Shown here: positions 8,725 through 53,469 of the stretch, in pieces
Layout: each line of letters starts with the position of its first letter
Numbering within the stretch: position 1 is the stretch's first letter
Assembly: GCA_035653615.1 (NCBI GenBank)
Contig: DASRBN010000015.1
Span: 124,001-188,000, forward strand
Reading direction: 5' to 3'
Source: Ktedonobacteraceae bacterium
Lineage (GTDB): Bacteria; Chloroflexota; Ktedonobacteria; Ktedonobacterales; Ktedonobacteraceae
DNA: 64,000 nucleotides
Notes under the pieces: generated by a model
Database searches by the model: none
What the model was told of the DNA's origin: nothing
The model's input: the letters and a program-made list of their open reading frames with translations, nothing else
Position numbers and translations under genes: made by a program

Positions 8725-9554
8725 TAGTGCGTTCCCTCCTGCCCTGGCGTCTGGTTTTCATGATGGTGCTTTGGCCCACCTATCGGCTCGTAGCGGTCAG
8801 AAAGCGAGCCGGCAGGCGCCTCCCATTCATAGCGTTTCTCGTCCACTTCCCATGGCTCTGGCCTTCCACCCTCCAGGCGCATGTAGCCACGCGGATAGGC
8901 CGGGCCGCCAAAGCCAATCTCATCCCAGGCATAAGGATGAGCGTAGTACACCTCCACCGCGTCCTGTAGCAGCAACATCCAGAAGTGCTGGATCGACATC
9001 TTTTGCCAGATTTCGTGCGCCCCTACTGGAGTCGCATCGTGAATAGATTTGAGGATCGTATCTTGCTCCGTCTGGTTCAACTCGGTGAAAGACCTTCCGT
9101 ACATCTCCTTCGACATCTGCTCAATCGCCTGCAGGCCCAATCGATGCGCTTCATGATCGGGCGGCATGTCCTCGAAGCGATAGCCATCGATGCGCCGCTC
9201 GTACAGGCGCTCGTCAATGTAGTTGACCATCGGTATTTTATGCGCCTCATCGCGGTCATCCTGGGGCAGCAAACGGTCACAGACCGCCTGCATCAGATAC
9301 GCCTCTTCGGTCGTAAAAAAGCGGATTGGCGGCACGTTATTCATGCGATCAAGCACCACTTTTCTTGTGGCTTCGTCCCAGAATTCCTGCTGGCTCAGCG
9401 TTGAGAAACCAGGATAGTAGCCCGGTTGTGCCACCGGTTGAATAGGTTTGCCCGTTTTAGGATTCACCGGTAAATGGTCTTCGCGTACCGACATGGTTTT
9501 ATCGACTTCAAAGACTTGTGAGTGAGGAGCTTTAGGGTTGCGTTGCACTTTCAT
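8724..9554 (-). CDS. Gluconate 2-dehydrogenase subunit 3-like protein
   Basis: A 276-residue protein whose middle (RFFTTEEAYLMQAVCDRLLPQ, then many short helices) matches the small subunit 3 family that pairs with GMC dehydrogenases. In known complexes this subunit stabilises or exports the flavoprotein with a Tat signal; here the N-terminus is hydrophilic and has no twin-arginine signal, so the complex may stay cytoplasmic or at the inner face of the membrane. The C-terminal third carries Tyr/Trp-rich sequence (YAHPYAWDEIGFGGPAYPRGY) and ends in a His-rich tail. It ends one base into the GMC gene and follows the duplicated membrane protein gene by one base, making a tight three-gene unit. 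Confidence 0.82.
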   Translation of the reverse strand: MKVQRNPKAPHSQVFEVDKTMSVREDHLPVNPKTGKPIQPVAQPGYYPGFSTLSQQEFWDEATRKVVLDRMNNVPPIRFFTTEEAYLMQAVCDRLLPQDDRDEAHKIPMVNYIDERLYERRIDGYRFEDMPPDHEAHRLGLQAIEQMSKEMYGRSFTELNQTEQDTILKSIHDATPVGAHEIWQKMSIQHFWMLLLQDAVEVYYAHPYAWDEIGFGGPAYPRGYMRLEGGRPEPWEVDEKRYEWEAPAGSLSDRYEPIGGPKHHHENQTPGQEGTH

Positions 9555-9555
9555 A

Positions 9556-10710
9556 TTATTTCTCTCTCCTTAACAGGCTTGCCAGCACTCCCAGGAATCC
9601 AGAGGCGGCAAACAGTAGTGGTGCGAATATAGGCGGACCATAAATGATGTTGTACAGGAGTTTGCTGCTACCGGCAGGTCGCCGCAATATACCGCGCAGG
9701 TGATAGAAGAAGCCAATGCCACCATTGAGCAGCGCCAGGATCGAGGCCACCGGCAGCAGTGTGCGCGCTATCGCCCGGCTCCACAGGGTGCCAAAACCGG
9801 CAATCATCAAGACCGGCGTCAAAAGGATGGGCGTCCATTGTATGCGATAGGTGAAATTATTCTTGTAATGGGAATAGAGCGACTCGAAGCCACTGAAGAA
9901 CGCGGAGACCGCCGTCGCCACTCCCAACATGCGTTGAAAGCGTCCCTCACGGATATCCTGCTCAAACACCAGTCCCTCGTGCGTGATGCTATGTGGCAGC
10001 AGGTGCATCCATGTAGAGCGAGGCTTCACCAGCCCACCGAATGTAGGAAACTCAGGCGCGTCCTCTCGGCGTAAAAAGGCCGTAATCAAACCCAGGAAGC
10101 CGCTGAGGCCAAACAGCAAGGGCGCAAACAGCGGCGGCCCCATAATCAGGTTGAACACCGGAATGCGCCATCCTCCCGGTTTGCGATGGATGCCGCGAAT
10201 GTGATAGAAGAAGCCGACCAGCCCATCGAGCATCATCACCAGCGAAACAATCGGTAACACGACACGCGCCGCGAACCGGCTGAAGACTGCCCAGATCGCC
10301 GCGATACATATCACAGGAGACAACAGCACCGGACTATACATGATGCGCTGGCTATAGCTGCCCCGGTAGTGTTCATAGGTCACTTCCAATCCTGCCAGCA
10401 AGCCCGAGAAAGCGGTAATCAACGCCAGGCTGCGCTGGAAGCGTCCCTCGCGAATGTGCTGCTCCAGAACCACTCCCTCGTGCGTGATCTGGCGCGGCAG
10501 CATATCCAACAGCGTTGACTGTCGTGGTTGACCCTTGCGGCTCAACGAGCGCCAGAGCCGGACGACTGCAATCGCACCACTCAAAATAGTACCGATGGGC
10601 AAGCGGCCTCGCGATGACGTACGTGACGGTGTTCCAACATGCATTGCTTGCTGAAGCGCCTTGCGCGTACTTCCATTTTGTGCAAGATCAATCGGTATTT
10701 TAACGGCCAT
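9556..10710 (-). CDS. Internally duplicated multi-pass membrane protein of unknown function
   Basis: A 384-residue protein made of two homologous halves of roughly 150 residues. Each begins L(P)xxITHEGxVxEQxIREGRFQR, runs through about four hydrophobic segments, contains GFFYHxRGIxRxP, and ends with GPPxFAPLLFxxSGFLGxxxxxLRRE. This gives about eight predicted membrane helices. The first 60 residues are basic and not duplicated. I do not recognise the family. Because it is packed one base from the subunit 3 gene and then the GMC dehydrogenase, it may be the membrane anchor or quinone-docking partner that replaces the missing cytochrome subunit. That role is an inference from position only. The conserved His in ITHEG and FYH in both halves are candidate functional residues. 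Confidence 0.8.
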   Translation of the reverse strand: MAVKIPIDLAQNGSTRKALQQAMHVGTPSRTSSRGRLPIGTILSGAIAVVRLWRSLSRKGQPRQSTLLDMLPRQITHEGVVLEQHIREGRFQRSLALITAFSGLLAGLEVTYEHYRGSYSQRIMYSPVLLSPVICIAAIWAVFSRFAARVVLPIVSLVMMLDGLVGFFYHIRGIHRKPGGWRIPVFNLIMGPPLFAPLLFGLSGFLGLITAFLRREDAPEFPTFGGLVKPRSTWMHLLPHSITHEGLVFEQDIREGRFQRMLGVATAVSAFFSGFESLYSHYKNNFTYRIQWTPILLTPVLMIAGFGTLWSRAIARTLLPVASILALLNGGIGFFYHLRGILRRPAGSSKLLYNIIYGPPIFAPLLFAASGFLGVLASLLRREK

Positions 10711-43499: not shown

Positions 43500-44758
43500 G
43501 AATATCTGTACGTAATCCTGGAGCATTTTTTAGCGGGCATACTTTCGCCAGCCTGCGCCGGCATCATAACTATCGGCTCTATTTTTCGGGCCAGTTTCTC
43601 TCTCAGATCGGCACCTGGCTGCAGAGCGCAGCCATGGCCTGGCTTGTTCTCGAACTGACCCACTCGGCATTCGCAGTCGGTATGCTGGCTTTCTGGCAAT
43701 TCGGCCCATATGTAATACTCGGCCTGTTCGGGGGAGCGATCAGCGACCGGCTCGATCATCGGACAACGCTGATTGCGACCCAGGTGGCCCTGGCATTATG
43801 CAGCGGTACAATGGCCGGACTGACGCTTTTGCATGTCGTCACTGTGTGGGAAGCCTACGCAATCGCGGCCCTGCGCGGACTCGTATTAATCATCAATAAT
43901 CCCAGCCGGCAGGCATTCATCTTCCAGATGGTTGGACGCGAAGAATTACCAAACGCCATCGCGCTGAATTCCAGTGTAGCCAACGCGACTCGCATCATCG
44001 GCCCCGGACTCGGCGGCCTGCTCATAGCTGCTTTTGGAGTCGGCATCTGTTTTAGCATTGACGCAATCAGCTATGTGGCTGTAATCATCGCCCTGCTGAT
44101 GATGAACGTCAACGAGCTGCTGCCGATTGAGCGGCATGGCAGGCCTACGATTCTGCGCGGAATTGGCGAGGGTCTTGACTATGCGCGCCGCACGACGACC
44201 GTCTGGCTGGCATTAACGATCTTCCTCTTCATCTGTACGGCAAGTATCAACTTCAACGTGCTGCTGCCACTCGTCGCCAGCAATACGCTGCGTTCAGGCG
44301 CCGAGATCTATGGCCTGCTGACGGCATGTTTTGGAGCCGGTGCGTTAATAGGCGCCTTGATTTCCGCCTCATTGGGCCGCGCAAACTGGCGTATCTTGCT
44401 AATGAGCGCAGGAGGGTTCGGCATAGGTGAACTGTTGCTCGCGCCACAGAATACCGTCGTTGGCGCAGTACTCCTACTGATTGCCACCGGCATTTGCTAT
44501 ACCCTCTACACCTCCAACACGAATGCCATCGTCCAACTTGCCACGCCTGGCTACCTGCAAGGGCGTGTGGCCGGGCTTTACAGCTACATATTCTCTGGCA
44601 CCAGCTCTTTCGGTGCGCTGCTGGCAGGTGGACTGGCCGACCTGGGCGGTACGCAACTCGCTTTCGTAGTGGCAGGTGGTACCGCGCTCGTCTTCGCCAC
44701 CTTTGGACTGGCCTTCCGCTGGCGCGAGTTTCATAAAGGGACCGTTAATGGAGCTTGA
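43496..44758 (+). CDS. MFS transporter
   Basis: A 420-residue twelve-helix transporter, with FSGQFLSQIGTWLQSAAMAWLVLELTHSA at the start, GGAISDRLDHRTTL as the conserved loop 2-3 motif, and FGAGALIGALISASLGRANWR in the second half. It belongs to the enterobactin-exporter/EntS-like branch of the major facilitator superfamily and is probably a proton-driven efflux pump. It is coupled to the MarR gene by a four-base overlap. Its last 14 bases overlap the convergent GH5 gene. Confidence 0.9.
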   Translation: MRISVRNPGAFFSGHTFASLRRHHNYRLYFSGQFLSQIGTWLQSAAMAWLVLELTHSAFAVGMLAFWQFGPYVILGLFGGAISDRLDHRTTLIATQVALALCSGTMAGLTLLHVVTVWEAYAIAALRGLVLIINNPSRQAFIFQMVGREELPNAIALNSSVANATRIIGPGLGGLLIAAFGVGICFSIDAISYVAVIIALLMMNVNELLPIERHGRPTILRGIGEGLDYARRTTTVWLALTIFLFICTASINFNVLLPLVASNTLRSGAEIYGLLTACFGAGALIGALISASLGRANWRILLMSAGGFGIGELLLAPQNTVVGAVLLLIATGICYTLYTSNTNAIVQLATPGYLQGRVAGLYSYIFSGTSSFGALLAGGLADLGGTQLAFVVAGGTALVFATFGLAFRWREFHKGTVNGA

Positions 44759-46625
44759 TCACCCGAATCTTATGTATCTCTCTCGCCTCCGTGTGCCGGT
44801 ATTCGACCACCTGCCGCTCGCGGTCTATCTCGTAGCTGCCGTCCGAGACCTCGACTGTGTATCCACGCGGATACTGGTAATTGGGCACAAACAACACCGT
44901 CGGCGCGCTAATCGAGGCATCATGGCGGAACTCGAACTCGAAGATCTTGCGCCGCATATCAAACCCCATCCGCAGCGGCTCGCCCGCCACTGCCCGCGCG
45001 TATGGCCGTACCACCGCCTGTAGCGCCCGTCCACCAGAATGAATATCCGCTGGATGCAGTTGCTGATCGCGGCTGAAAATCGACAGGTCCTCGTCATTCC
45101 ATTGATCGCCATACGCATTCGTATTGTCTGCCGTATAGTTCCACAGCGTGCAGCTCATCAGCGCGTCCTCTAACGCGCGCATGTTTCGATTCATCGCCCG
45201 TATCTGCTTGCTAAAATCACCGCTGCGATACGCCTTCTTCTTATCCAGGTCGAACGGTATACCAATCTCGCCAATAAGCACGGGCGCGCCACCCAGAAAT
45301 GCTGCCGCCTGCTGCCTGAACGTCGCCAATTGAGCGGCAAATGACCTGCGAATGCGGCCCGGCCCGAACACCAGCTTCCCGGTAAATATATTGAAGCCGA
45401 CCCATGGCGAGTACTGCTTCATGAACAGCACGAATGCATCGTACCAGTGCGGGGCGTAAACGATCTCCGGCGCATCCTCTGCCCTCCAATGGGGCGGTTT
45501 ATGGTTGATCTCACATTCCAGAAAGATCAGCGCTCCCGGGTGGACTGAGCGCATTTCGCGCGCGAAACGATTGGCAAATGGCCGGTAATAATCCTCACTG
45601 AAATCCACCTCTCGTCCATTTATCACAGCAAAATAATCGAGGCGCAGCAGGCGCGGTGTTCCGTCTGGCGTCACATCCCACACCCCATGCCGCTTCCAGA
45701 TGCACTCTATCCCATCGCGCCAGGCACGTATCATCTTGGCATTGACCGTGTGATGACCAACAAGTCTGGGGCCGCTCACACGCTGTTCCCACACCTCGAT
45801 CTCCTCTGGATATCCATCGCCGAGCAGCATCGTCTGAAACACGGTTGGACACTTGCCCATTTTGACCAGCCCGTTATACGTGTTGGCATCCTTGCAACCA
45901 ATATAGCCACTCAGCGGCTCGTTCATCGTATCGTAGCCAATCACGTTCGGCAATTCACGCACCCGCCGCGCTACCTGCTTTATCGCCTCGATATAATGCC
46001 GCTGCAGGTACTCCTGTACCGGCTCGCCATCCACATGTACCAGCGGAGCGAAATCATTGCCGCCGAAAAAGAGCGTACACATTGTCGCAGCCGCCAGTTT
46101 CGCCCCATTCGTAGGCCAGATCATACGCGGAAAAGGGCCATCCCAAAGCTGGTGAAGAATGGCAGCGCCCGTCTCCTGGAACTTTGTAATATCCAATCCC
46201 ACGGCCTCGAATGTCCAGCCGGGCGCTCCATCGCCCCCTGAAAAGCGGCTCCAGACATCCTGGTGCGGATCGATACACACGTGAAAACCATACTCTCCGG
46301 CCTTTTGGAGAATCGCGTAAATATAGTCCAGGTAATCTTCGTCATATATTCCCGGCCCCGCGTGCTCTATCGCCTCCCAGGTTATCAGGAAGCGCAGGAA
46401 GTTGAAGCCCCATTCCTTCAAACGCGAGAAGTGTTCATCGGCCTCCTCAAGCGGAAAAGGGCGTCCAACAAACGATATATCGCGGTGTTCAAAGAAGCCA
46501 TCGCGAATATGCGTAGCGCCATCCGGTTTGAACGGCACCTTAGAACTCCCACCCAGATTGATCCCCCGCAACAGCAGCGTTCGTCCCGCCTCATCCTGAA
46601 AATGAGAGCCTTTGATGGAGATCAT
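44745..46625 (-). CDS. GH5 glycosidase, glucosylceramidase/sterylglucosidase (GH5_12)-like
   Basis: About 626 residues. The TIM barrel of GH5 is clear: LLLRGINLGGSSKVPF, WEAIEHAGPG, DPHQDVWSRFSGGDGAPGWT, DTMNEP with the acid/base Glu and LIGEIGIPFD with the nucleophile Glu. A beta C-terminal domain of about 90 residues closes it. The HQDVWSR..GGDGAPGW segment is the pattern of fungal glucosylceramidases and sterylglucosidases, so the substrate is probably a glucoside on a lipid rather than a polysaccharide. No signal peptide is seen. It is the last gene of the CruF-acyltransferase/GT2 run. AGGAG lies eight bases before the ATG at 46625. Confidence 0.83.
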   Translation of the reverse strand: MISIKGSHFQDEAGRTLLLRGINLGGSSKVPFKPDGATHIRDGFFEHRDISFVGRPFPLEEADEHFSRLKEWGFNFLRFLITWEAIEHAGPGIYDEDYLDYIYAILQKAGEYGFHVCIDPHQDVWSRFSGGDGAPGWTFEAVGLDITKFQETGAAILHQLWDGPFPRMIWPTNGAKLAAATMCTLFFGGNDFAPLVHVDGEPVQEYLQRHYIEAIKQVARRVRELPNVIGYDTMNEPLSGYIGCKDANTYNGLVKMGKCPTVFQTMLLGDGYPEEIEVWEQRVSGPRLVGHHTVNAKMIRAWRDGIECIWKRHGVWDVTPDGTPRLLRLDYFAVINGREVDFSEDYYRPFANRFAREMRSVHPGALIFLECEINHKPPHWRAEDAPEIVYAPHWYDAFVLFMKQYSPWVGFNIFTGKLVFGPGRIRRSFAAQLATFRQQAAAFLGGAPVLIGEIGIPFDLDKKKAYRSGDFSKQIRAMNRNMRALEDALMSCTLWNYTADNTNAYGDQWNDEDLSIFSRDQQLHPADIHSGGRALQAVVRPYARAVAGEPLRMGFDMRRKIFEFEFRHDASISAPTVLFVPNYQYPRGYTVEVSDGSYEIDRERQVVEYRHTEAREIHKIRVIKLH

Positions 46626-46646
46626 GGAAAGTTCTCCTATATCCAC

Positions 46647-48218
46647 TTACCCTGAAAGGGCGGTTGGCGTCGTGTACGAGAGTGTACGCACATCTTGCTC
46701 AATAGCGCTCACCAGTTGTTCGATATCGTCAAAATCACTACGATAACGTGGCTCGCCAAAGCGCACCGTAGTGTGCCAACGCTTATCTTGCCCGCGTGTG
46801 TAACTCAGACCTGCCGGAACAATCGCCACCCGCGTTTTTCTATCCTTTTCTGCCAGCTCTACCAGCCTGGCGAAGCCGGGTTTGAAGGGCATAAAAGCCT
46901 CAAGGTCCGGCTTCGGCGTCGGATGCGGATCAATGTTGGGATAGCCCTCTGGAAAAATGACCATCATCTCCCCTGACCGGAACAGCCGCACCGCCGCCCG
47001 CGTCAATTGCCGCAGATATTGCCGGGTCTCAATGGGCGTATAGGCCCACTGCTTATCCGGCTCGTGTTCGTGAAACTGCTCGCTGCGCAGCACCACCGGC
47101 CAATCGGCCAGCAAACAGGCCAGCTCTATGACCAGGCGCAACTTTCGCGATGTCACCCAGTCCAGCGCCACAATCGTATGCAAGCGCCGGGGAATGGCCC
47201 GCACCAGGATAAACCCATCATAGAAGTAGTGGAAGTGGCGCGCGGCAACCAACACCGGCCCCGACTGTGGAACATGTTCAACTCCCTCGACCTGGATCAC
47301 CATTGTTCGCCAGCCGATTACCAGGCTCATACCTCGCATCACTAGCCACACAGATTGGCTCAGAGCCGCGCGCCCCCGGCCATCCTGCGAAGTCCGTATT
47401 TCATCATTGCCGGGAACAAGCACTAACGATTCAGGAAACAACACGAACACGATCAATAAAAACGGAGTGAACCACAGGCCGCTGCCGAGGCTCAAAATCA
47501 TCGCGAAGCCCGTATTCACCGTATAGACCCCAAACGGAACCCAGGTCGTCACTTGCCTCGTATCAAGATTGGAGCGCCACAGCAATCTGCATACGGTGAG
47601 CAGGATCAGAATATCAAGCGTCCAACCGGCAAGACTGCTCATCGGCAGACCAAAGTAAGAACCGTATTCCTGCCAGTGCCATATTTGTGTAGAAATGCGC
47701 TGGCTTGCCAGCGCAGCGCTGAGCGCCAGGTCCCAGGTCATCAAGAAATAAGTACCCAGGATCAGCGACCACAACGTCTGGCGATGCAATTCAAGTTTCG
47801 CCGCCAGTTTGCTCGCCAGCAAGTAGGATGTGAAGCCCATATAAAACCAGGTTAGCAGGATGGAATAGGAAACGAGTCCGGCCACTTTAATATCGGCAAG
47901 CGGCGTGGCAGAAGAAATGCCCGATGGGAAACCGATCCTCATATTGAGCAATTCAATGCCCATCGTGACAAGTACCGAAGCGGCAAAAAAGATCAGCGTC
48001 TTGCGCGGGCCGACGCCCAGTAGCCCGAAGAAAAACATCGTCGCCGCGCCAAAGATGATTTGCAGCGTCCCGGCGCTGCGCAGCACAAACTCAAAAATAG
48101 CCACCCCAACAGGATTTGTATCCCATACTTGCGGATGTGGCGCAATGATCAACAAGACCCCCAATCCACAAATCAGGGCCGCGAGATGGCAGGTGAAGAG
48201 TACTTTGACTATTCTCAT
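46647..48218 (-). CDS. CruF-like carotenoid hydratase domain fused to a PlsC-type acyltransferase
   Basis: A 523-residue fusion. Residues about 1-265 form seven or eight membrane helices with the pattern of the DUF422/CruF family that adds water across carotenoid ends: an ELLNMRIGFPSG segment, LTWFYMGFTSYLLA, TYFLMTWDLALSAAL and WHWQEYGSYFGLP followed by GW. Residues about 295-510 are a lysophospholipid-type acyltransferase with VLVAARHFHYFYDG (the His-Asp site, in an atypical spacing) and FPEGYPN as motif III. Other phototrophic Chloroflexi make glycosyl-carotenoid esters with separate hydratase, glycosyl- and acyltransferases. Here hydratase and acyltransferase are one protein next to a GT2 enzyme. 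The carotenoid role is inferred from the family pattern. Confidence 0.78.
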   Translation of the reverse strand: MRIVKVLFTCHLAALICGLGVLLIIAPHPQVWDTNPVGVAIFEFVLRSAGTLQIIFGAATMFFFGLLGVGPRKTLIFFAASVLVTMGIELLNMRIGFPSGISSATPLADIKVAGLVSYSILLTWFYMGFTSYLLASKLAAKLELHRQTLWSLILGTYFLMTWDLALSAALASQRISTQIWHWQEYGSYFGLPMSSLAGWTLDILILLTVCRLLWRSNLDTRQVTTWVPFGVYTVNTGFAMILSLGSGLWFTPFLLIVFVLFPESLVLVPGNDEIRTSQDGRGRAALSQSVWLVMRGMSLVIGWRTMVIQVEGVEHVPQSGPVLVAARHFHYFYDGFILVRAIPRRLHTIVALDWVTSRKLRLVIELACLLADWPVVLRSEQFHEHEPDKQWAYTPIETRQYLRQLTRAAVRLFRSGEMMVIFPEGYPNIDPHPTPKPDLEAFMPFKPGFARLVELAEKDRKTRVAIVPAGLSYTRGQDKRWHTTVRFGEPRYRSDFDDIEQLVSAIEQDVRTLSYTTPTALSG

Positions 48219-48274
48219 GAGACCTCCGCGTGTGAACGCATGGCCTTACATCTTCATATATTTTCGCACATGAA

Positions 48275-49687
48275 CTAATCGGCCAACCCCGTAGGGACAG
48301 CGCCTGGTGCCTGTCCTGGCTCCGGGGTGTGTCCTGTATCCGGGGCATATCCTGGTTCCTTCTGCTTATCCTGTATCCAGGGCATGTCATTCTGAGCAGT
48401 GAGCCGAAGCCCTGAGGAACGAAAGGGAAGAATTTCCGTTGACTTGCCCGGCGGCAACATTCTCTCCCGTATATGAATCTGCCGCCCTTTCCATTGCGCG
48501 CCATGCCCCGTCAATATCAAACGTGCCACGTCAAGCACCATGACGCCAAAAACAGCCCAGCTCAAAGGCGCCGCCAGAGACCAGGTTACCAGCAATCCAT
48601 GTTCGCGATCAAAGCAGCGTTTCGCGTCGATCTGCGCCAGCAGAGTAATGCCTGCCAGCAGCGCAGCGAGACGAGGCATTTTTCTCGTAAGGAGCGCATA
48701 GGCAAGCGTGCAAAGTGGTCCCAGACCATAAATAATCAACGCTAACCCGGCGTGCAGACCACCAAATGGCACGCGCGAACGAATGATTTCGCTATAACAA
48801 CTCTTCCCCCACCCCTGGCGGGCGCTTTTCCACGTCGTCCACTGCCGGTTCGCAATCAGGCCGCGTCCATTCACCAGCTCGACGCGCTTTCCAGCCCATT
48901 TGAACTGTTCAGCGAGCGCGAGATCGTCGATAAAGGTTGTGCGCATGTAGCTGGCCGCGTAGCCACCTGTCTCCACATACGCCTTGCGGCGCAGCAGAAT
49001 ATATTGCCCAAAGGCGAACGCGCGTGGGTGCGCAGGATCGCTAATCTCGCCCGGTGTCACACGATGGGCCAGGATCACCTCGCTCAAGGGCATCAGCAAG
49101 GGCATCGCCGTGCCACTCATATCCATCAGATTTGTGTACATGGTCAGTAAATCGATGTTCCGGCCCAACGCGTGCCCGACCATCAGGCGCAGCGTCTGTG
49201 GAGCATGCCGTGTATCGGCGTCCGTAAACAGCATCCATTCGCCATCTGTAAGGGTAGCTCCCGTATGCAGCGCGTGCGGCTTGCCCGCCCAATCAGGGGG
49301 CAGATCGTCAATCCGGTGTACCATGATACGCGGGTCGCGTCCTCTCCACTGATCCAGCAGGCAAGGAGTAGCGTCGGTTGAGCCATCATCGATAACCGTG
49401 ATACTGAAATTTGGATAATCCTGCGCCAGCAGCGATTTGAGGCAGGCATCAATATTCGCCTCCTCATTGCGTACCGGCAGGATAATCGAGACACGCGGTG
49501 CCGTTTCCGGCAAAGGAAGATCGTCCGGTGGATGTAGCTCTCGAACGGCGCGATGCGAACGATAACTCTGATACAGCGCAATCAGCGCCATGATGGAGAG
49601 TCCCCCCAGCATGAGGAAGTGCTGTAGGGACAGTGCCTGGTGCCTGTCCCGTTTCCCCATGTCACCTGTGGTTCGACCTGAAAACAT
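48275..49687 (-). CDS. GT2 glycosyltransferase, CruG-like, with ends encoded by dispersed repeats
   Basis: A 470-residue membrane glycosyltransferase. RVSIILPVRNEEANIDACL opens the GT-A domain, FTDADTRHAP holds the DxD, and FIDDLALAE and QWTTW belong to the acceptor region (EDxx and QxxRW equivalents). One helix precedes and three or four follow the catalytic domain. This is the CruG / 2'-O-glycosyltransferase layout. The ATG at 49687 has AGGAG five bases upstream, so the first 25 codons are real reading frame although they run through a family A repeat (RHQALSLQ). The last 45 codons run through a family B and another family A copy (LTAQNDM, GQAPGAVPTG). It precedes the CruF-acyltransferase gene by about 55 bases. 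Confidence 0.82.
   Translation of the reverse strand: MFSGRTTGDMGKRDRHQALSLQHFLMLGGLSIMALIALYQSYRSHRAVRELHPPDDLPLPETAPRVSIILPVRNEEANIDACLKSLLAQDYPNFSITVIDDGSTDATPCLLDQWRGRDPRIMVHRIDDLPPDWAGKPHALHTGATLTDGEWMLFTDADTRHAPQTLRLMVGHALGRNIDLLTMYTNLMDMSGTAMPLLMPLSEVILAHRVTPGEISDPAHPRAFAFGQYILLRRKAYVETGGYAASYMRTTFIDDLALAEQFKWAGKRVELVNGRGLIANRQWTTWKSARQGWGKSCYSEIIRSRVPFGGLHAGLALIIYGLGPLCTLAYALLTRKMPRLAALLAGITLLAQIDAKRCFDREHGLLVTWSLAAPLSWAVFGVMVLDVARLILTGHGAQWKGRQIHIRERMLPPGKSTEILPFRSSGLRLTAQNDMPWIQDKQKEPGYAPDTGHTPEPGQAPGAVPTGLAD
48291..48318. repeat. Family A repeat inside the 3' end of the glycosyltransferase gene
   Basis: GTAGGGACAG...CCTGTCCTGG lies between the stop and codons 455-465 of the gene and is translated. 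Confidence 0.7.
48385..48433. repeat. Family B long-form repeat inside the glycosyltransferase gene
   Basis: GTCATTCTGAGC, then GCCGAAGCCCTGAGGAA and AAGGGAAGAAT, the same arrangement as at 51829-51891. It is in frame and encodes ILPFRSSGLRLTAQNDM on the minus strand. Confidence 0.75.
49623..49650. repeat. Family A repeat inside the 5' end of the glycosyltransferase gene
   Basis: TAGGGACAG...CCTGTCCC is translated as DRHQALSLQ between the start and the first membrane helix. Confidence 0.75.
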
Positions 49688-49798: not shown

Positions 49799-49842
49799 GG
49801 TACGTTTTGTAGGGACAAGCAACTGTCCCTACAAAACGTACC
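49799..49842. terminator. Perfect 19-bp hairpin between the glycosyltransferase and methyltransferase genes
   Basis: GGTACGTTTTGTAGGGACA (49799-49817) pairs exactly with 49824-49842 around AGCAAC. Its inner part is a family A unit. It lies in the divergent gap, so it is not simply a terminator of either neighbour. Confidence 0.6.
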
Positions 49843-49961
49843 ACAATCAGGTCTCTAGATTTGGCTAACAGCAAGAAATAACATACAATAGTTTCATGCA
49901 ATCCCCGGCCAGAATCATAAATAAGGCGGGAAACACGGTATTAAAGGTGTATTCAGAGAAA

Positions 49962-51746
49962 ATGGGTAAATATAATCTGATCTTAGGCGATAGCTCCCAA
50001 CTCATTAAAACAATACCCGACCAATCCATTGACCTGATTCTAACAGACCCACCCTATAATCTAGGCCGTTACTCCACCGGCAACATCAAAATGTCCTGGC
50101 GAAAAGACTTTAATAACGACGTTGCCGAGTGGGATACCACCATCTTCAACCCCGCTGATTGGCTAAATGAGTTCAAACGCGTGCTGAAGCCAACAGGCAC
50201 CATCTTTGCTTTCACCAGCTATAACTTATTGGGCCAGTGGCACCAGGTGTTTGATCCTGCCTTCGATACCTTTCAGTTCATGGTGTGGCATAAGTGTCTT
50301 GCCGCAAGTACAAGGGTATACGCCAGGACTGCTGAAGGCGATGGCCCGCTGATGCTAAAAGACCTTGTGCGTATGGAGCCTTGTTCTGTAAAGCTTTGGA
50401 ATGGGCAGAAGTGGACGCAGGTACTATCGTGGGACAGGGCGCAACCAGGGAGCGAAGGACTTGAGATAGAGCTTCGCAGCGGTGAAAAAATTTCTGCCAC
50501 CAAGGAACATCGCTGGCCGACAGCGCGCGGGTTGGTTCCTACGCGAGATTTGCAGATTGGCGATATCATCCAGACAACAGTCATCCCAGAGCCTGATACT
50601 CCCGATTATCCTGCCTTTTTGCCTGACGAAGAAATCGGCTGGTTTGTGGGTATGTACCTGGCGGAAGGCAATATAGGTACTGATAACGACACGGTCTTTT
50701 TTGCGGCACATAGAAAAGAGACAGCAAGGTTTGATCGCATTGACCGTATAGCGAGAGCGCTGGGCTGTTCATCAGATACAAAATACTATGGTGATGGGGA
50801 TGGAGCTACCACCATTATCCGGGGGAAGATAGCAGTCGAGGTGATCAAAAAGTATATTGATGACACAAACGCAAAGACCAGGCATCTACGCATGACTTGC
50901 TGGCGAAGGTCGAACCGGTTTCTGGAATCATTGCTTGCCGGTTACTTAGAGGGTGATGGAAATTATGATGAGCAGAATGAACGCTGGCGACTGAGCTTTA
51001 CCTGCAATGATGCACTGGCGCGGGATATGCGAACGCTCTGCGCTCGTCTGGGATACCACCTGACGCTCAAGGTTGCTGATGGCCGGTTGAGGGATGTGCC
51101 ATTCCCCAAATACATGGGTACTATTCGCACGAGTCGCAATGGGCATAGTGATGAGAAGCAGAGGAGCGAAGTAATAGCTGTCAGGCCATCCATGTGTGAC
51201 ACATTCTGGGATGTAACGCTCGCGGATGATCCGCATGTCTTTGCCCTGGCTTCTGGTATTCTTACCCATAACACCAACCCGCCGCCAAAGCTCAGGCGAG
51301 CAGGCTTCCTCAATAGCTGCGAACTCATCGTATGCGTCTGGAACAAAGGGCACACCTGGAATTTTACCAGGCAGAAAGACATGCACAACTTCATAGAAAG
51401 CCCCATCTGTATGGGCAAGGAACGAGTAAAAAACCCTGTTCATCCAACTCAGAAGCCCATCAAGGTGTTGAGCAGACTGATAGAATTAGCCACCCATCCA
51501 GGCGACCTCGTGTTCGACCCCTTTATGGGAGTTGGTTCAACTGGAGTAGCTGCCTTGCAACTCAACCGGTGTTTTACCGGCATAGAAATCGATCCAGCCT
51601 ACTTCGCCGCAGCCGAGAAACGCATCCAGCTGGCCGCATTTACTCCCGAAGTGTTTGCACCTGAGTCAGAAGACCGGAAGAATAACGCCCGTGTCGATAA
51701 TCTCAATGAGGAGAGTCAAGAGCAGACACTTTTTGCATCGAATTAA
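49962..51746 (+). CDS. DNA adenine/cytosine methyltransferase (DPPY, beta order) interrupted by an intein
   Basis: The spliced protein is about 268 residues. Motif IV (LTDPPYNLG) comes early, and the AdoMet-binding motif I region (FDPFMGVGSTGVAAL, GIEIDPAYF) comes last, so this is the beta arrangement of N6-adenine or N4-cytosine methyltransferases. No restriction enzyme or specificity subunit is adjacent, so it looks like an orphan enzyme that marks DNA for regulation or defence escape. The intein splits the conserved W-H-K / T-N-P-P-P segment at 50295-51272, in the region that forms part of the active site, so the enzyme should be inactive until splicing. The start at 49962 (MGKYNLILGDSS) is preferred; an upstream ATG at 49896 has no ribosome-binding site. 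Confidence 0.88.
   Translation: MGKYNLILGDSSQLIKTIPDQSIDLILTDPPYNLGRYSTGNIKMSWRKDFNNDVAEWDTTIFNPADWLNEFKRVLKPTGTIFAFTSYNLLGQWHQVFDPAFDTFQFMVWHKCLAASTRVYARTAEGDGPLMLKDLVRMEPCSVKLWNGQKWTQVLSWDRAQPGSEGLEIELRSGEKISATKEHRWPTARGLVPTRDLQIGDIIQTTVIPEPDTPDYPAFLPDEEIGWFVGMYLAEGNIGTDNDTVFFAAHRKETARFDRIDRIARALGCSSDTKYYGDGDGATTIIRGKIAVEVIKKYIDDTNAKTRHLRMTCWRRSNRFLESLLAGYLEGDGNYDEQNERWRLSFTCNDALARDMRTLCARLGYHLTLKVADGRLRDVPFPKYMGTIRTSRNGHSDEKQRSEVIAVRPSMCDTFWDVTLADDPHVFALASGILTHNTNPPPKLRRAGFLNSCELIVCVWNKGHTWNFTRQKDMHNFIESPICMGKERVKNPVHPTQKPIKVLSRLIELATHPGDLVFDPFMGVGSTGVAALQLNRCFTGIEIDPAYFAAAEKRIQLAAFTPEVFAPESEDRKNNARVDNLNEESQEQTLFASN
50295..51272 (+). mobile_element. Intein with LAGLIDADG homing endonuclease motifs
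   Basis: A 326-residue in-frame insert. It begins with Cys (CLAASTRVYA), has the block B T-x-x-H (TKEH, 50499-50510), and ends with HN (51267-51272) followed by Thr as the +1 nucleophile. Between these, IGWFVGMYLAEG (50634 on) and LLAGYLEGDG (50931-50960) are the two LAGLIDADG-type helices of a dodecapeptide homing endonuclease, both with acidic residues. All residues known to be needed for protein splicing and endonuclease action are present, so it is probably a full-length active intein. Removing it restores an unbroken WHK-TNPPPK methyltransferase sequence, which supports the boundaries. Confidence 0.9.
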
Positions 51747-52275: not shown

Positions 52276-53469
52276 TTATACCATAGCGGCCAATGCCAGC
52301 CCCGTTCGCAACACATTTGTCGTCTCCAGGTTGCTCAGCACAACGACGACAAGATTGCTTTTGGGATAGAAGCCATTATATGTGAAGAATCCGTCAATAT
52401 GGCCGACATGATAGATCAATCTGCCCTGCGGCTCCGCGGCAATGAACCAGCCATAGCCGTATCCCAGGTCCGCGTGTTGCAAACAACCGCCCGGTCCAGG
52501 CGGCGGGCACGCGATATGTGGGGTGAACATCGCATCTAGCGCCTGCTGGGAAACCAGTTTATGCATCATCAGCGCCTGGTCCCATATGTTCAAATCTTCC
52601 ACGGTCGAATACAATGCCCCTGCCGCGTAGAGCACTGTGGGATCATAGGGCGCCGGTTTGATGTATCCCTGGTAATAGCCGGTGGCATGTTGTGGCAGCG
52701 CAGGGTAGGTCGTATCGTAGCCCGTATTGTACATCTTGAGCGGTGTAAAGATATTTTGCTGCAAAAACGCCGCATACGATTCACCGCTGACACGCTCGAT
52801 GATATAGCCCAGCAGGGTATAGCCCGAATTGCTGTACTTGAAACGCGAGCCGGGTGTAAATTCAAGCGGCAGGTCTTTAAAACGCGCAACCAGTTCTTCA
52901 GGAGTGGCAGGCTTAAGCCAGAACGATAGGAAATCAGGTGAGTTGATGTAATCAGGAATGCCGGAAGTATGTGTTAGCAGATTTTCGATAGTGATAGACT
53001 GCCAATCCTGCGGGCAGTCGGGAACATAGAGGCAGATGTGGTCCTGCACATGCAATTTGCCACGTTCCTGTAATAGAAGGATCGCCATCGCCGTAAACTG
53101 CTTGGTATTCGAGCCGATGCGGAAGCGTGTCTGCGGCGTATTAGGAATATTCGCGTCCTTATCTGCCAGCCCGTAGCCTTTCTCGAAGAGCATCCCATCA
53201 TGTGCTACAAGTACGGACCCGCTCAAAACGCCCTTCTGTTCCAGTCCCGTCAGGTAAGCATCGATTTGAGCCGCATTGGGAAAGGGTGTTGAAGCGGTTG
53301 GAACATTCAAGGTGGCAGTAGCAACGGGTTTTTTAGTGAGAGTAGTAACACCCGATGTTCCGCAACCAGCCACTAGCAAGATGAGCATAAGCATACAAAC
53401 AGAGAACCAGGCGCTATAGTAGGGGCGTACCCTTGTGGTCGCCCATTTTTCTACATTATCTTTTGACAC
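52276..53469 (-). CDS. Serine beta-lactamase-fold lipoprotein (class C-like hydrolase)
   Basis: A 397-residue hydrolase. The N-terminus has a hydrophobic stretch ending LLVAGC-GTSG, a lipobox, so it is likely tethered outside. The fold is the beta-lactamase/DD-peptidase type, with SNTK (SxxK) at the nucleophile, YSNSGY (YxN) and HVGHIDGF (HxG). Members act as beta-lactamases, esterases or D-aminopeptidases; nothing here selects among them. The GTG start at 53469 means the first 17 residues are read through a family D repeat (WATTRVRPYY); a start at 53394 (MLMLILLVAGC) would avoid it but lacks a ribosome-binding site and basic residues. It is a single gene on its strand. Confidence 0.83.
   Translation of the reverse strand: MSKDNVEKWATTRVRPYYSAWFSVCMLMLILLVAGCGTSGVTTLTKKPVATATLNVPTASTPFPNAAQIDAYLTGLEQKGVLSGSVLVAHDGMLFEKGYGLADKDANIPNTPQTRFRIGSNTKQFTAMAILLLQERGKLHVQDHICLYVPDCPQDWQSITIENLLTHTSGIPDYINSPDFLSFWLKPATPEELVARFKDLPLEFTPGSRFKYSNSGYTLLGYIIERVSGESYAAFLQQNIFTPLKMYNTGYDTTYPALPQHATGYYQGYIKPAPYDPTVLYAAGALYSTVEDLNIWDQALMMHKLVSQQALDAMFTPHIACPPPGPGGCLQHADLGYGYGWFIAAEPQGRLIYHVGHIDGFFTYNGFYPKSNLVVVVLSNLETTNVLRTGLALAAMV

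What the first reader, a model, noticed from the sequence alone, without database searches (positions are those of the whole stretch)
44745..49687. Glycolipid module: CruF-acyltransferase fusion, CruG-like GT2 and a lipid-type GH5 glycosidase
Three tightly spaced minus-strand genes encode a hydratase domain, an acyltransferase, a glycosyltransferase and a sterylglucosidase/glucosylceramidase-like hydrolase. Known Chloroflexi make glycosyl-carotenoid fatty esters using separate enzymes. Here hydration and acylation are one polypeptide, and the hydrolase that could undo the glucoside is in the same run. This suggests a self-contained synthesis and turnover unit for an acyl-glycosyl carotenoid or an isoprenoid lipid.
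Basis: partly seen in the sequence, partly recalled or inferred. Interest (0 to 1): 0.8.

Follow-up and report, generated by a model that had tools for sequence, protein, structure and literature searches.

The report
Paralogous glycolipid operon with degenerate CruF
Three co-oriented genes in a Chloroflexota genome encode a sugar transferase, a fused membrane-protein/acyltransferase and a sterol-glucosidase-like enzyme; the fusion is a known carotenoid architecture, but this duplicate copy has lost the residues typical of the hydrating half, so the cluster is more likely a side branch that decorates a membrane glycolipid than a complete pigment factory.

Summary
In detail: three minus-strand genes, each with its own ribosome-binding site, encode a GT2, a CruF(PF04240)-PlsC(PF01553) fusion and a GH5 of the fungal sterylglucosidase type. 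(1) The fusion is not new: Thermomicrobium roseum trd_1162 was described in 2009 as a 1,1'-hydroxylase with a C-terminal acyltransferase domain (PMC2615216). (2) This genome has the canonical operon elsewhere: crtB, CruG-type GT2, CruF-PlsC, crtI on contig 42. (3) The window fusion is a paralogue; with six orthologues in one related genus it forms a 100/100 clade. Its CruF half has lost residues conserved across PF04240 (an acidic residue present in 31/31 homologues is Ser here, Asn in the orthologues). It keeps 38/61 canonical invariants, the PlsC half 30/32, yet dN/dS in the orthologues is 0.05: probably a retained pseudo-hydratase, not a hydratase. (4) The GT2 scores closer to HpnB than CruG; its close relatives occur only beside this fusion. 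(5) GH5 occurs in 1 of 47 genomes of the class, has Anaerolineae relatives, and keeps the complete Sgl1 active site. Best reading: a duplicated, repurposed glycosylation/acylation module for an isoprenoid lipid, with a recently added glucosidase; substrate unknown.

The parts
48275..49687 (-). GT2 glycosyltransferase 'GT2-b' (470 aa), HpnB-like more than CruG-like; the last ~45 aa look repeat-derived
   Evidence: Pfam PF00535 4.2e-23; HpnB 153 vs CruG 126 bits; relatives of at least 50% identity only in the same 7 genomes, always beside the b-type fusion
47421..48218 (-). CruF (PF04240) domain, residues 1-266 of the fusion; hydrophobic membrane segments; lacks family-conserved residues (pseudo-hydratase candidate)
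   Evidence: PF04240 1.1e-30; 38/61 canonical invariants kept vs 92-100% for canonical members left out one at a time; hydropathy
47907..47954 (-). Degenerate motif 1, residues 89-104: canonical E-L-x-G-T-x-T-G-x-P-F-G-x-Y-x-Y reads ELLNMRIGFPSGISSA
   Evidence: alignments
47709..47732 (-). Degenerate motif 2, residues 163-170: canonical D-L-x-[LI]-[DE]-P-x-M reads DLALSAAL (acidic167 to Ser, P168 to Ala)
   Evidence: acidic residue and Pro present in 31/31 PF04240 members compared
46650..47348 (-). PlsC-type acyltransferase domain, residues 291-523; keeps 30/32 canonical invariants; motif RHFHYFYD (HX5D spacing) and FPEGYPNIDP
   Evidence: PF01553 6.8e-11
44745..46625 (-). GH5 glycoside hydrolase of the fungal sterylglucosidase (Sgl1/SglA) type; catalytic E243 and E460 (numbered from the GTG at 46646); no predicted signal peptide or TM segment by hydropathy
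   Evidence: model pLDDT 92, TM 0.93 to Sgl1 7lpp/7lpo
49799..49842 (.). Perfect 19-bp inverted repeat (6-nt loop) upstream of the GT2, carrying the TGTAGGGACA repeat

Best explanation
The locus is a duplicated and repurposed copy of the carotenoid glycosyl-ester tailoring unit. The genome keeps the original unit elsewhere (crtB, CruG-like GT2, CruF-PlsC, crtI, contig 42), which would hydrate, glycosylate and acylate an acyclic carotenoid. The window copy arose by duplication inside the class. It lost the residues typical of the hydratase but kept a hydrophobic CruF-like domain and a PlsC-type acyltransferase, and it became paired with its own GT2 subfamily. Most likely mechanism: GT2-b adds a sugar to a membrane isoprenoid lipid (a carotenol made by the contig-42 operon, or a hopanoid). 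The PlsC half then puts a fatty acyl chain on that sugar, with the CruF half holding the hydrophobic acceptor or anchoring the enzyme. In this genome alone a cytoplasmic sterylglucosidase-type GH5 was added behind it and could remove a single glucose from an un-acylated lipid glucoside. Shown: gene calls, the second operon, paralogy, residue loss, purifying selection in the orthologues, GT2 co-occurrence, intact GH5 active site. Inferred: co-transcription, the identity of the acceptor, acylation of the sugar, and a functional link of the GH5.
For: Second fusion in a crtB-GT2-CruF/PlsC-crtI operon on contig 42, 51% identical. Window copy plus six g3 copies monophyletic 100/100, nested inside the canonical fused clade of the class. 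CruF half: 38/61 canonical invariants kept (g3: 39-40) vs PlsC 30/32, Fisher p 0.001; canonical members left out one at a time keep 92-100%. Across 31 PF04240 members the acidic residue at 167, P168 and N195 are universal; window has S, A, S; g3 has N, A, N and also lacks E89. P168A is shared by all b-type copies. dN/dS of CruF-b among the six g3 copies is 0.051, PlsC-b 0.089. GT2 relatives of at least 50% only in the same 7 of 47 genomes, adjacent to the b-type fusion, three in tandem in g3. All Sgl1 glucose-contact residues and the cap Trp584 are kept, and the fold matches Sgl1 at TM 0.93.
Against: No chemistry was done. Which CruF residues are catalytic has not been published as far as I found; loss of conserved residues suggests, but does not prove, loss of hydration. 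E89 is still present in the window copy. The PlsC motif is HX5D (not HX4D) in the whole family, so acyltransferase activity is itself inferred. dN/dS was measured only in the g3 orthologues. The GH5 link rests on one genome. 'Isoprenoid acceptor' rests on homology to the canonical unit.
Confidence: 0.5

Rival explanations
1. One reading: a working bifunctional hydratase-acyltransferase with GT2 and a hydrolase, a complete synthesis and turnover unit for an acyl-glycosyl carotenoid.
For: PF04240 107 bits, PF01553, GT2 and GH5 in one run; carotenoid genes exist in the genome; T. roseum precedent for the fused enzyme and for acylated glycosyl carotenoids.
Against: Hydratase-typical residues lost in the window copy and in its six orthologues; CruF model scores halved; no crtB/crtI at the locus; the intact unit is elsewhere; GH5 absent from every other genome with the module.
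Confidence: 0.12
2. The module works on hopanoids rather than carotenoids: GT2-b glycosylates a hopanoid, PlsC acylates it, and the sterylglucosidase-like GH5 removes the glucose from a polycyclic triterpenoid.
For: The genome has squalene-hopene cyclase, HpnH and an HpnA-like gene in one cluster on contig 31. The window GT2 scores higher on HpnB than on CruG, the contig-42 GT2 the reverse. The GH5 matches enzymes with an enclosed sterol-sized pocket.
Against: HpnB-like GT2s of about 36-40% identity occur in nearly every genome of the class, so the score is weak evidence; the function of HpnB is itself not established. The locus is not near the hopanoid cluster, and the CruF domain points to carotenoid ancestry.
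Confidence: 0.2
3. The GH5 is a passenger: a horizontally acquired, free-standing glucosidase (for example for scavenged steryl glucosides) that happens to sit behind the fusion and has no link to GT2-b/PlsC-b. This can be true together with the best explanation for the other two genes.
For: GH5 in 1 of 47 genomes of the class; nearest relatives in Anaerolineae (68% identity); no CruF, PlsC or GT2-b neighbour at any of 80 relatives; six orthologous modules lack it.
Against: Only 21 nt separate its start from the stop of the fusion, with its own SD, so it is probably co-transcribed; it has no secretion signal by hydropathy, so it would have to act on intracellular lipid.
Confidence: 0.45
4. The CruF half has gained a new catalytic reaction on an isoprenoid rather than being inactive.
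For: Strong purifying selection on the domain in g3 (dN/dS 0.051) and residues fixed in all b-type copies but absent from canonical ones (A25I, P168A, M170L, M191L, V/A263E).
Against: No new set of polar residues common to all b-type copies is apparent; E89 is kept in the window copy but lost in g3, and N195 is the other way round, which fits relaxed active-site constraint better than a new shared active site.
Confidence: 0.12

Closest known systems
Thermomicrobium roseum trd_1162, 1,1'-hydroxylase with C-terminal acyltransferase domain (PMC2615216)
   Same: CruF-type domain fused to an acyltransferase domain; beside a GT2
   Different: trd_1162 sits with crtB, cruC and crtI; its equivalent here is the contig-42 protein. 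The window protein is a paralogue without crtB/crtI and with a degenerate CruF half. The trd_1162 sequence itself was not compared here.
CruF gamma-carotene 1'-hydroxylase / bisanhydrobacterioruberin hydratase (PF04240; NF045693; TIGR03460)
   Same: Same family and hydrophobic domain; E89, D163, W180 and W182 kept in the window copy
   Different: acidic167, P168, N195, F99, Y102, Y104 and P117 replaced; NF045693 155 bits vs 266-295 for two full-length canonical fused copies
Sgl1 / SglA fungal sterylglucosidases (7lpo, 8exd; GH5_12-type)
   Same: About 35-38% identity over the full length, all listed glucose-contact residues, cap Trp, two-domain fold (TM 0.93)
   Different: Bacterial, shorter, behind lipid-tailoring genes; aglycone unknown
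HpnB, hopene-associated GT2 (TIGR03469) and CruG 2'-O-glycosyltransferase (NF045692)
   Same: Same GT2 subfamily region, membrane segments
   Different: Far below both curated cut-offs (153 of 379; 126 of 600); acceptor unknown

Membership tests
CruF hydratase (PF04240) | Pfam domain score above gathering cut-off | tested here: met
   107.5 bits vs 25
CruF hydratase (PF04240) | Residues conserved across the family (acidic167-P168, N195, P-F-G-x-Y-x-Y motif) | tested here: not met
   acidic167 to S, P168 to A, N195 to S, F99 to S, Y102 to S, Y104 to A, while 30-31 of 31 others keep them
CruF hydratase (PF04240) | NCBIfam equivalog cut-off (NF045693, 400 bits; TIGR03460, 154.7) | tested here: not met
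   154.9 and 49.9 bits; canonical fused copies at 266-295 and 133-139 also fall short of the cut-offs, so only the drop is informative
CruF hydratase (PF04240) | Hydration of the psi end of a carotenoid | not testable with these tools
   needs expression in a carotenogenic host
PlsC/LPLAT acyltransferase (PF01553) | Pfam score and HX4D-type motif plus FPEG-type motif | tested here: inconclusive
   42.5 bits vs 23; motif is HX5D in all fused members; two models align there with one extra residue; FPEG/FPEA present
GH5 sterylglucosidase type (Sgl1/SglA) | Two catalytic Glu, K47/H142/N269/W570/E587 glucose contacts, cap W584 | tested here: met
   E243, E460, K36, H128, N242, W502, E519, W516
GH5 sterylglucosidase type (Sgl1/SglA) | Fold of Sgl1 over the full length, with C-terminal beta-sandwich | tested here: met
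   TM 0.93 to Sgl1 vs 0.54 to endoglycoceramidase
GH5 sterylglucosidase type (Sgl1/SglA) | Hydrolysis of steryl beta-glucoside | not testable with these tools
   enzyme assay needed
CruG glycosyltransferase | CruG model best and above cut-off, carotenoid operon context | tested here: not met
   HpnB scores higher; no crtB/crtI nearby
HpnB | Score above curated cut-off and hopanoid cluster context | tested here: not met
   153 of 379 bits; hopanoid cluster is on another contig

The most novel reading that the evidence does not exclude
A carotenoid hydratase domain has been turned into a non-hydrating, conserved lipid-binding partner of a fused acyltransferase, giving a new glycolipid-acylating enzyme that works with its own GT2 subfamily (three tandem copies in the related genus), and in one lineage with a sterylglucosidase that can reverse the glycosylation.
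Probability: 0.4. Interest if true: 0.55.

Novelty: new variant of a known kind. Interest (0 to 1): 0.4.

Why it matters
It separates a known architecture (CruF-acyltransferase fusion) from an apparently unreported paralogue in which the hydratase half looks inactive yet is under strong selection. If true, it would be a case of a carotenoid enzyme reused as a lipid-handling domain, and it points to an uncharacterised acyl-glycolipid in this class. It also warns that PF04240 hits with a PlsC domain should not all be annotated as hydratases.

Tried and rejected
Single-sequence AlphaFold2 of the fusion: pLDDT 39, unusable. PDB sequence search with the PlsC half: no match. A plasmid search was sent with a too-short query and not repeated. 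Shared flanking genes between the window and the g3 module: only weak hits (46% over ~54 aa) between DNA methylases, lying at different distances, taken as coincidence. Chance ORFs: rejected, since all three genes have family matches, SD sites and relatives. Pseudogene decay of the fusion: rejected by dN/dS 0.05 in g3 and open frames in 7 genomes. Lycopene cyclase: only weak PF05834 matches near the cut-off (27.4 and 23.6 bits vs 23.4, partial coverage), taken as generic FAD-domain hits, so an acyclic carotenoid is likely. GH5 neighbours in Anaerolineae: no shared context with the window apart from an MFS gene in 3 of 80 loci.

Full report
Observation. The three genes are there. One search gives ORFs 48275-49687, 46647-48218 and 44745-46646, all on the minus strand. 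Each start is preceded by a Shine-Dalgarno-like sequence. The GH5 probably starts at ATG 46625 (AGGAG just before it) rather than at the listed GTG, 21 nt after the stop of the fusion. Pfam places PF04240 (107 bits) and PF01553 (42 bits) on one 523-aa protein, GT2 domains on the 470-aa protein, and PF00150 plus PF18564 on the GH5. The best solved relatives of the GH5 are fungal sterylglucosidases SglA and Sgl1.

The fusion is already known. Wu et al. 2009 (PMC2615216) describe trd_1162 of Thermomicrobium roseum as a 1,1'-hydroxylase with a C-terminal acyltransferase domain, in a cluster with crtB, a GT2 (cruC) and crtI, together with acylated glycosyl carotenoids by HPLC and saponification. 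The premise that known Chloroflexi use separate enzymes is therefore wrong. A survey of 400 genomes of the phylum found the fused protein in about 20, mostly in the order crtB - GT2 - CruF/PlsC - crtI. The phylum is Chloroflexota: contig G104:C28 (229,723 bp, 'same phylum') has the length of Bellilinea caldifistulae contig NZ_LGHJ01000014.

The genome has the canonical operon elsewhere. PF04240 hits two places, contig 42 and the window. Contig 42 carries crtB (253370-254383), a CruG-like GT2 (319 bits CruG vs 106 HpnB), a CruF-PlsC fusion (51% identical to the window one) and crtI (TIGR02734 602 bits) in one run. No convincing lycopene cyclase was found.

The window copy is a paralogue. Six genomes of one related genus (g3) carry both the canonical operon and a second fusion 57% identical to the window one, followed by three tandem GT2s about 50% identical to the window GT2. 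In an ML tree the window and g3 copies form a 100/100 clade nested in the fused proteins of the same class. GT2s of at least 50% identity to the window GT2 exist only in these 7 of 47 genomes and always next to this fusion, so GT2-b and the b-type fusion form a conserved pair.

The CruF half has lost residues conserved through the family. Of 61 columns invariant in 13 canonical fused CruFs, the window keeps 38 and g3 keeps 39-40. Canonical members left out one at a time keep 92-100%. The PlsC half keeps 30 of 32 (Fisher p 0.001). With 18 stand-alone PF04240 proteins added, an acidic residue at position 167, P168 and N195 are present in all 31. The window has Ser, Ala, Ser; g3 has Asn, Ala, Asn and has also lost E89. 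The PFGxYxY motif is destroyed in both. P168A is shared by all seven, so part of the loss predates the split. Model scores fall in step: NF045693 155 and 149 bits for b-type against 266 and 295 for two full-length canonical copies. The domain is not decaying: among the g3 copies dN/dS is 0.051 for the CruF half and 0.089 for the PlsC half, lower than in the canonical copies (0.079, 0.182). I conclude that it most likely no longer hydrates carotenoids but keeps a selected role, such as binding or positioning a hydrophobic acceptor for the PlsC half. Which residues are catalytic in CruF has not been shown experimentally as far as I found (one search returned only a review and work on CrtC, a different hydratase), so this remains an inference.

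The GH5. It is a cytoplasmic protein by hydropathy. An AlphaFold model from 39 sequences (pLDDT 92) matches Sgl1 at TM 0.93 and SglA at 0.92, but endoglycoceramidases only at about 0.54. All Sgl1 residues reported to contact glucose, both catalytic glutamates and the Trp584 cap that limits the enzyme to one sugar (PMC8497620) are present and nearly invariant in 72 sequences. It is thus very likely a beta-glucosidase for a single glucose on a bulky hydrophobic aglycone. Its distribution argues against an old role in the module: 1 of 47 genomes of the class, nearest relatives in Anaerolineae at up to 68%, none of 80 relatives next to CruF, PlsC or GT2-b.

Which lipid. Carotenoid ancestry of the fusion favours a carotenol glycoside. 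The GT2's preference for the HpnB model, a hopanoid cluster in the genome (SHC 742 bits, HpnH 537 bits, both above cut-off) and a sterol-type glucosidase leave a hopanoid open. HpnB's function is not established (PMC12583986). I cannot decide between them with sequence alone.

Verdict. The known part is the fusion; the new part is a duplicated b-type module with a degenerate hydratase half and its own GT2, plus a single-genome addition of a sterylglucosidase-type GH5.

Noticed in passing
49896-51746 (+): A DNA N6/N4-methylase (PF01555) is split by about 270 aa that look like an intein (CLAASTRVYA ... ISATKEHRW ... HVFALASGILTHN), directly upstream of and divergent from the GT2.
   Followed up: no
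13 places in the window, e.g. 17110, 31900, 48290, 49623, 49808: The sequence TGTAGGGACAG (up to 1 mismatch) occurs 13 times against 0.72 expected. It lies in a perfect 19-bp inverted repeat upstream of the GT2 and inside the ends of the GT2 gene (peptide DRHQALSL), so the GT2 termini look repeat-derived.
   Followed up: partly
46650-47348 and all CruF-PlsC fusions: The acyltransferase motif is RHxHHxxD in canonical copies (RHFHYFYD in b-type), i.e. HX5D with one residue more than the usual HX4D, invariant in 14 canonical copies.
   Followed up: partly
L038-L043: In the related genus the paralogous fusion is followed by three tandem, mutually similar GT2 genes.
   Followed up: partly
L092 (G000:C31:197001-217000): Hopanoid cluster: squalene-hopene cyclase, HpnH, HpnA-like and a squalene synthase-like gene.
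   Followed up: no
L045 (G346:C1:8328001-8348000), 9046-10104: Another genome carries a 352-aa protein with the PlsC half and only a remnant of the CruF half.
   Followed up: no
52276-53469 (-): Serine beta-lactamase-type protein (PF00144, 258 bits) with a lipoprotein-like start.
   Followed up: no
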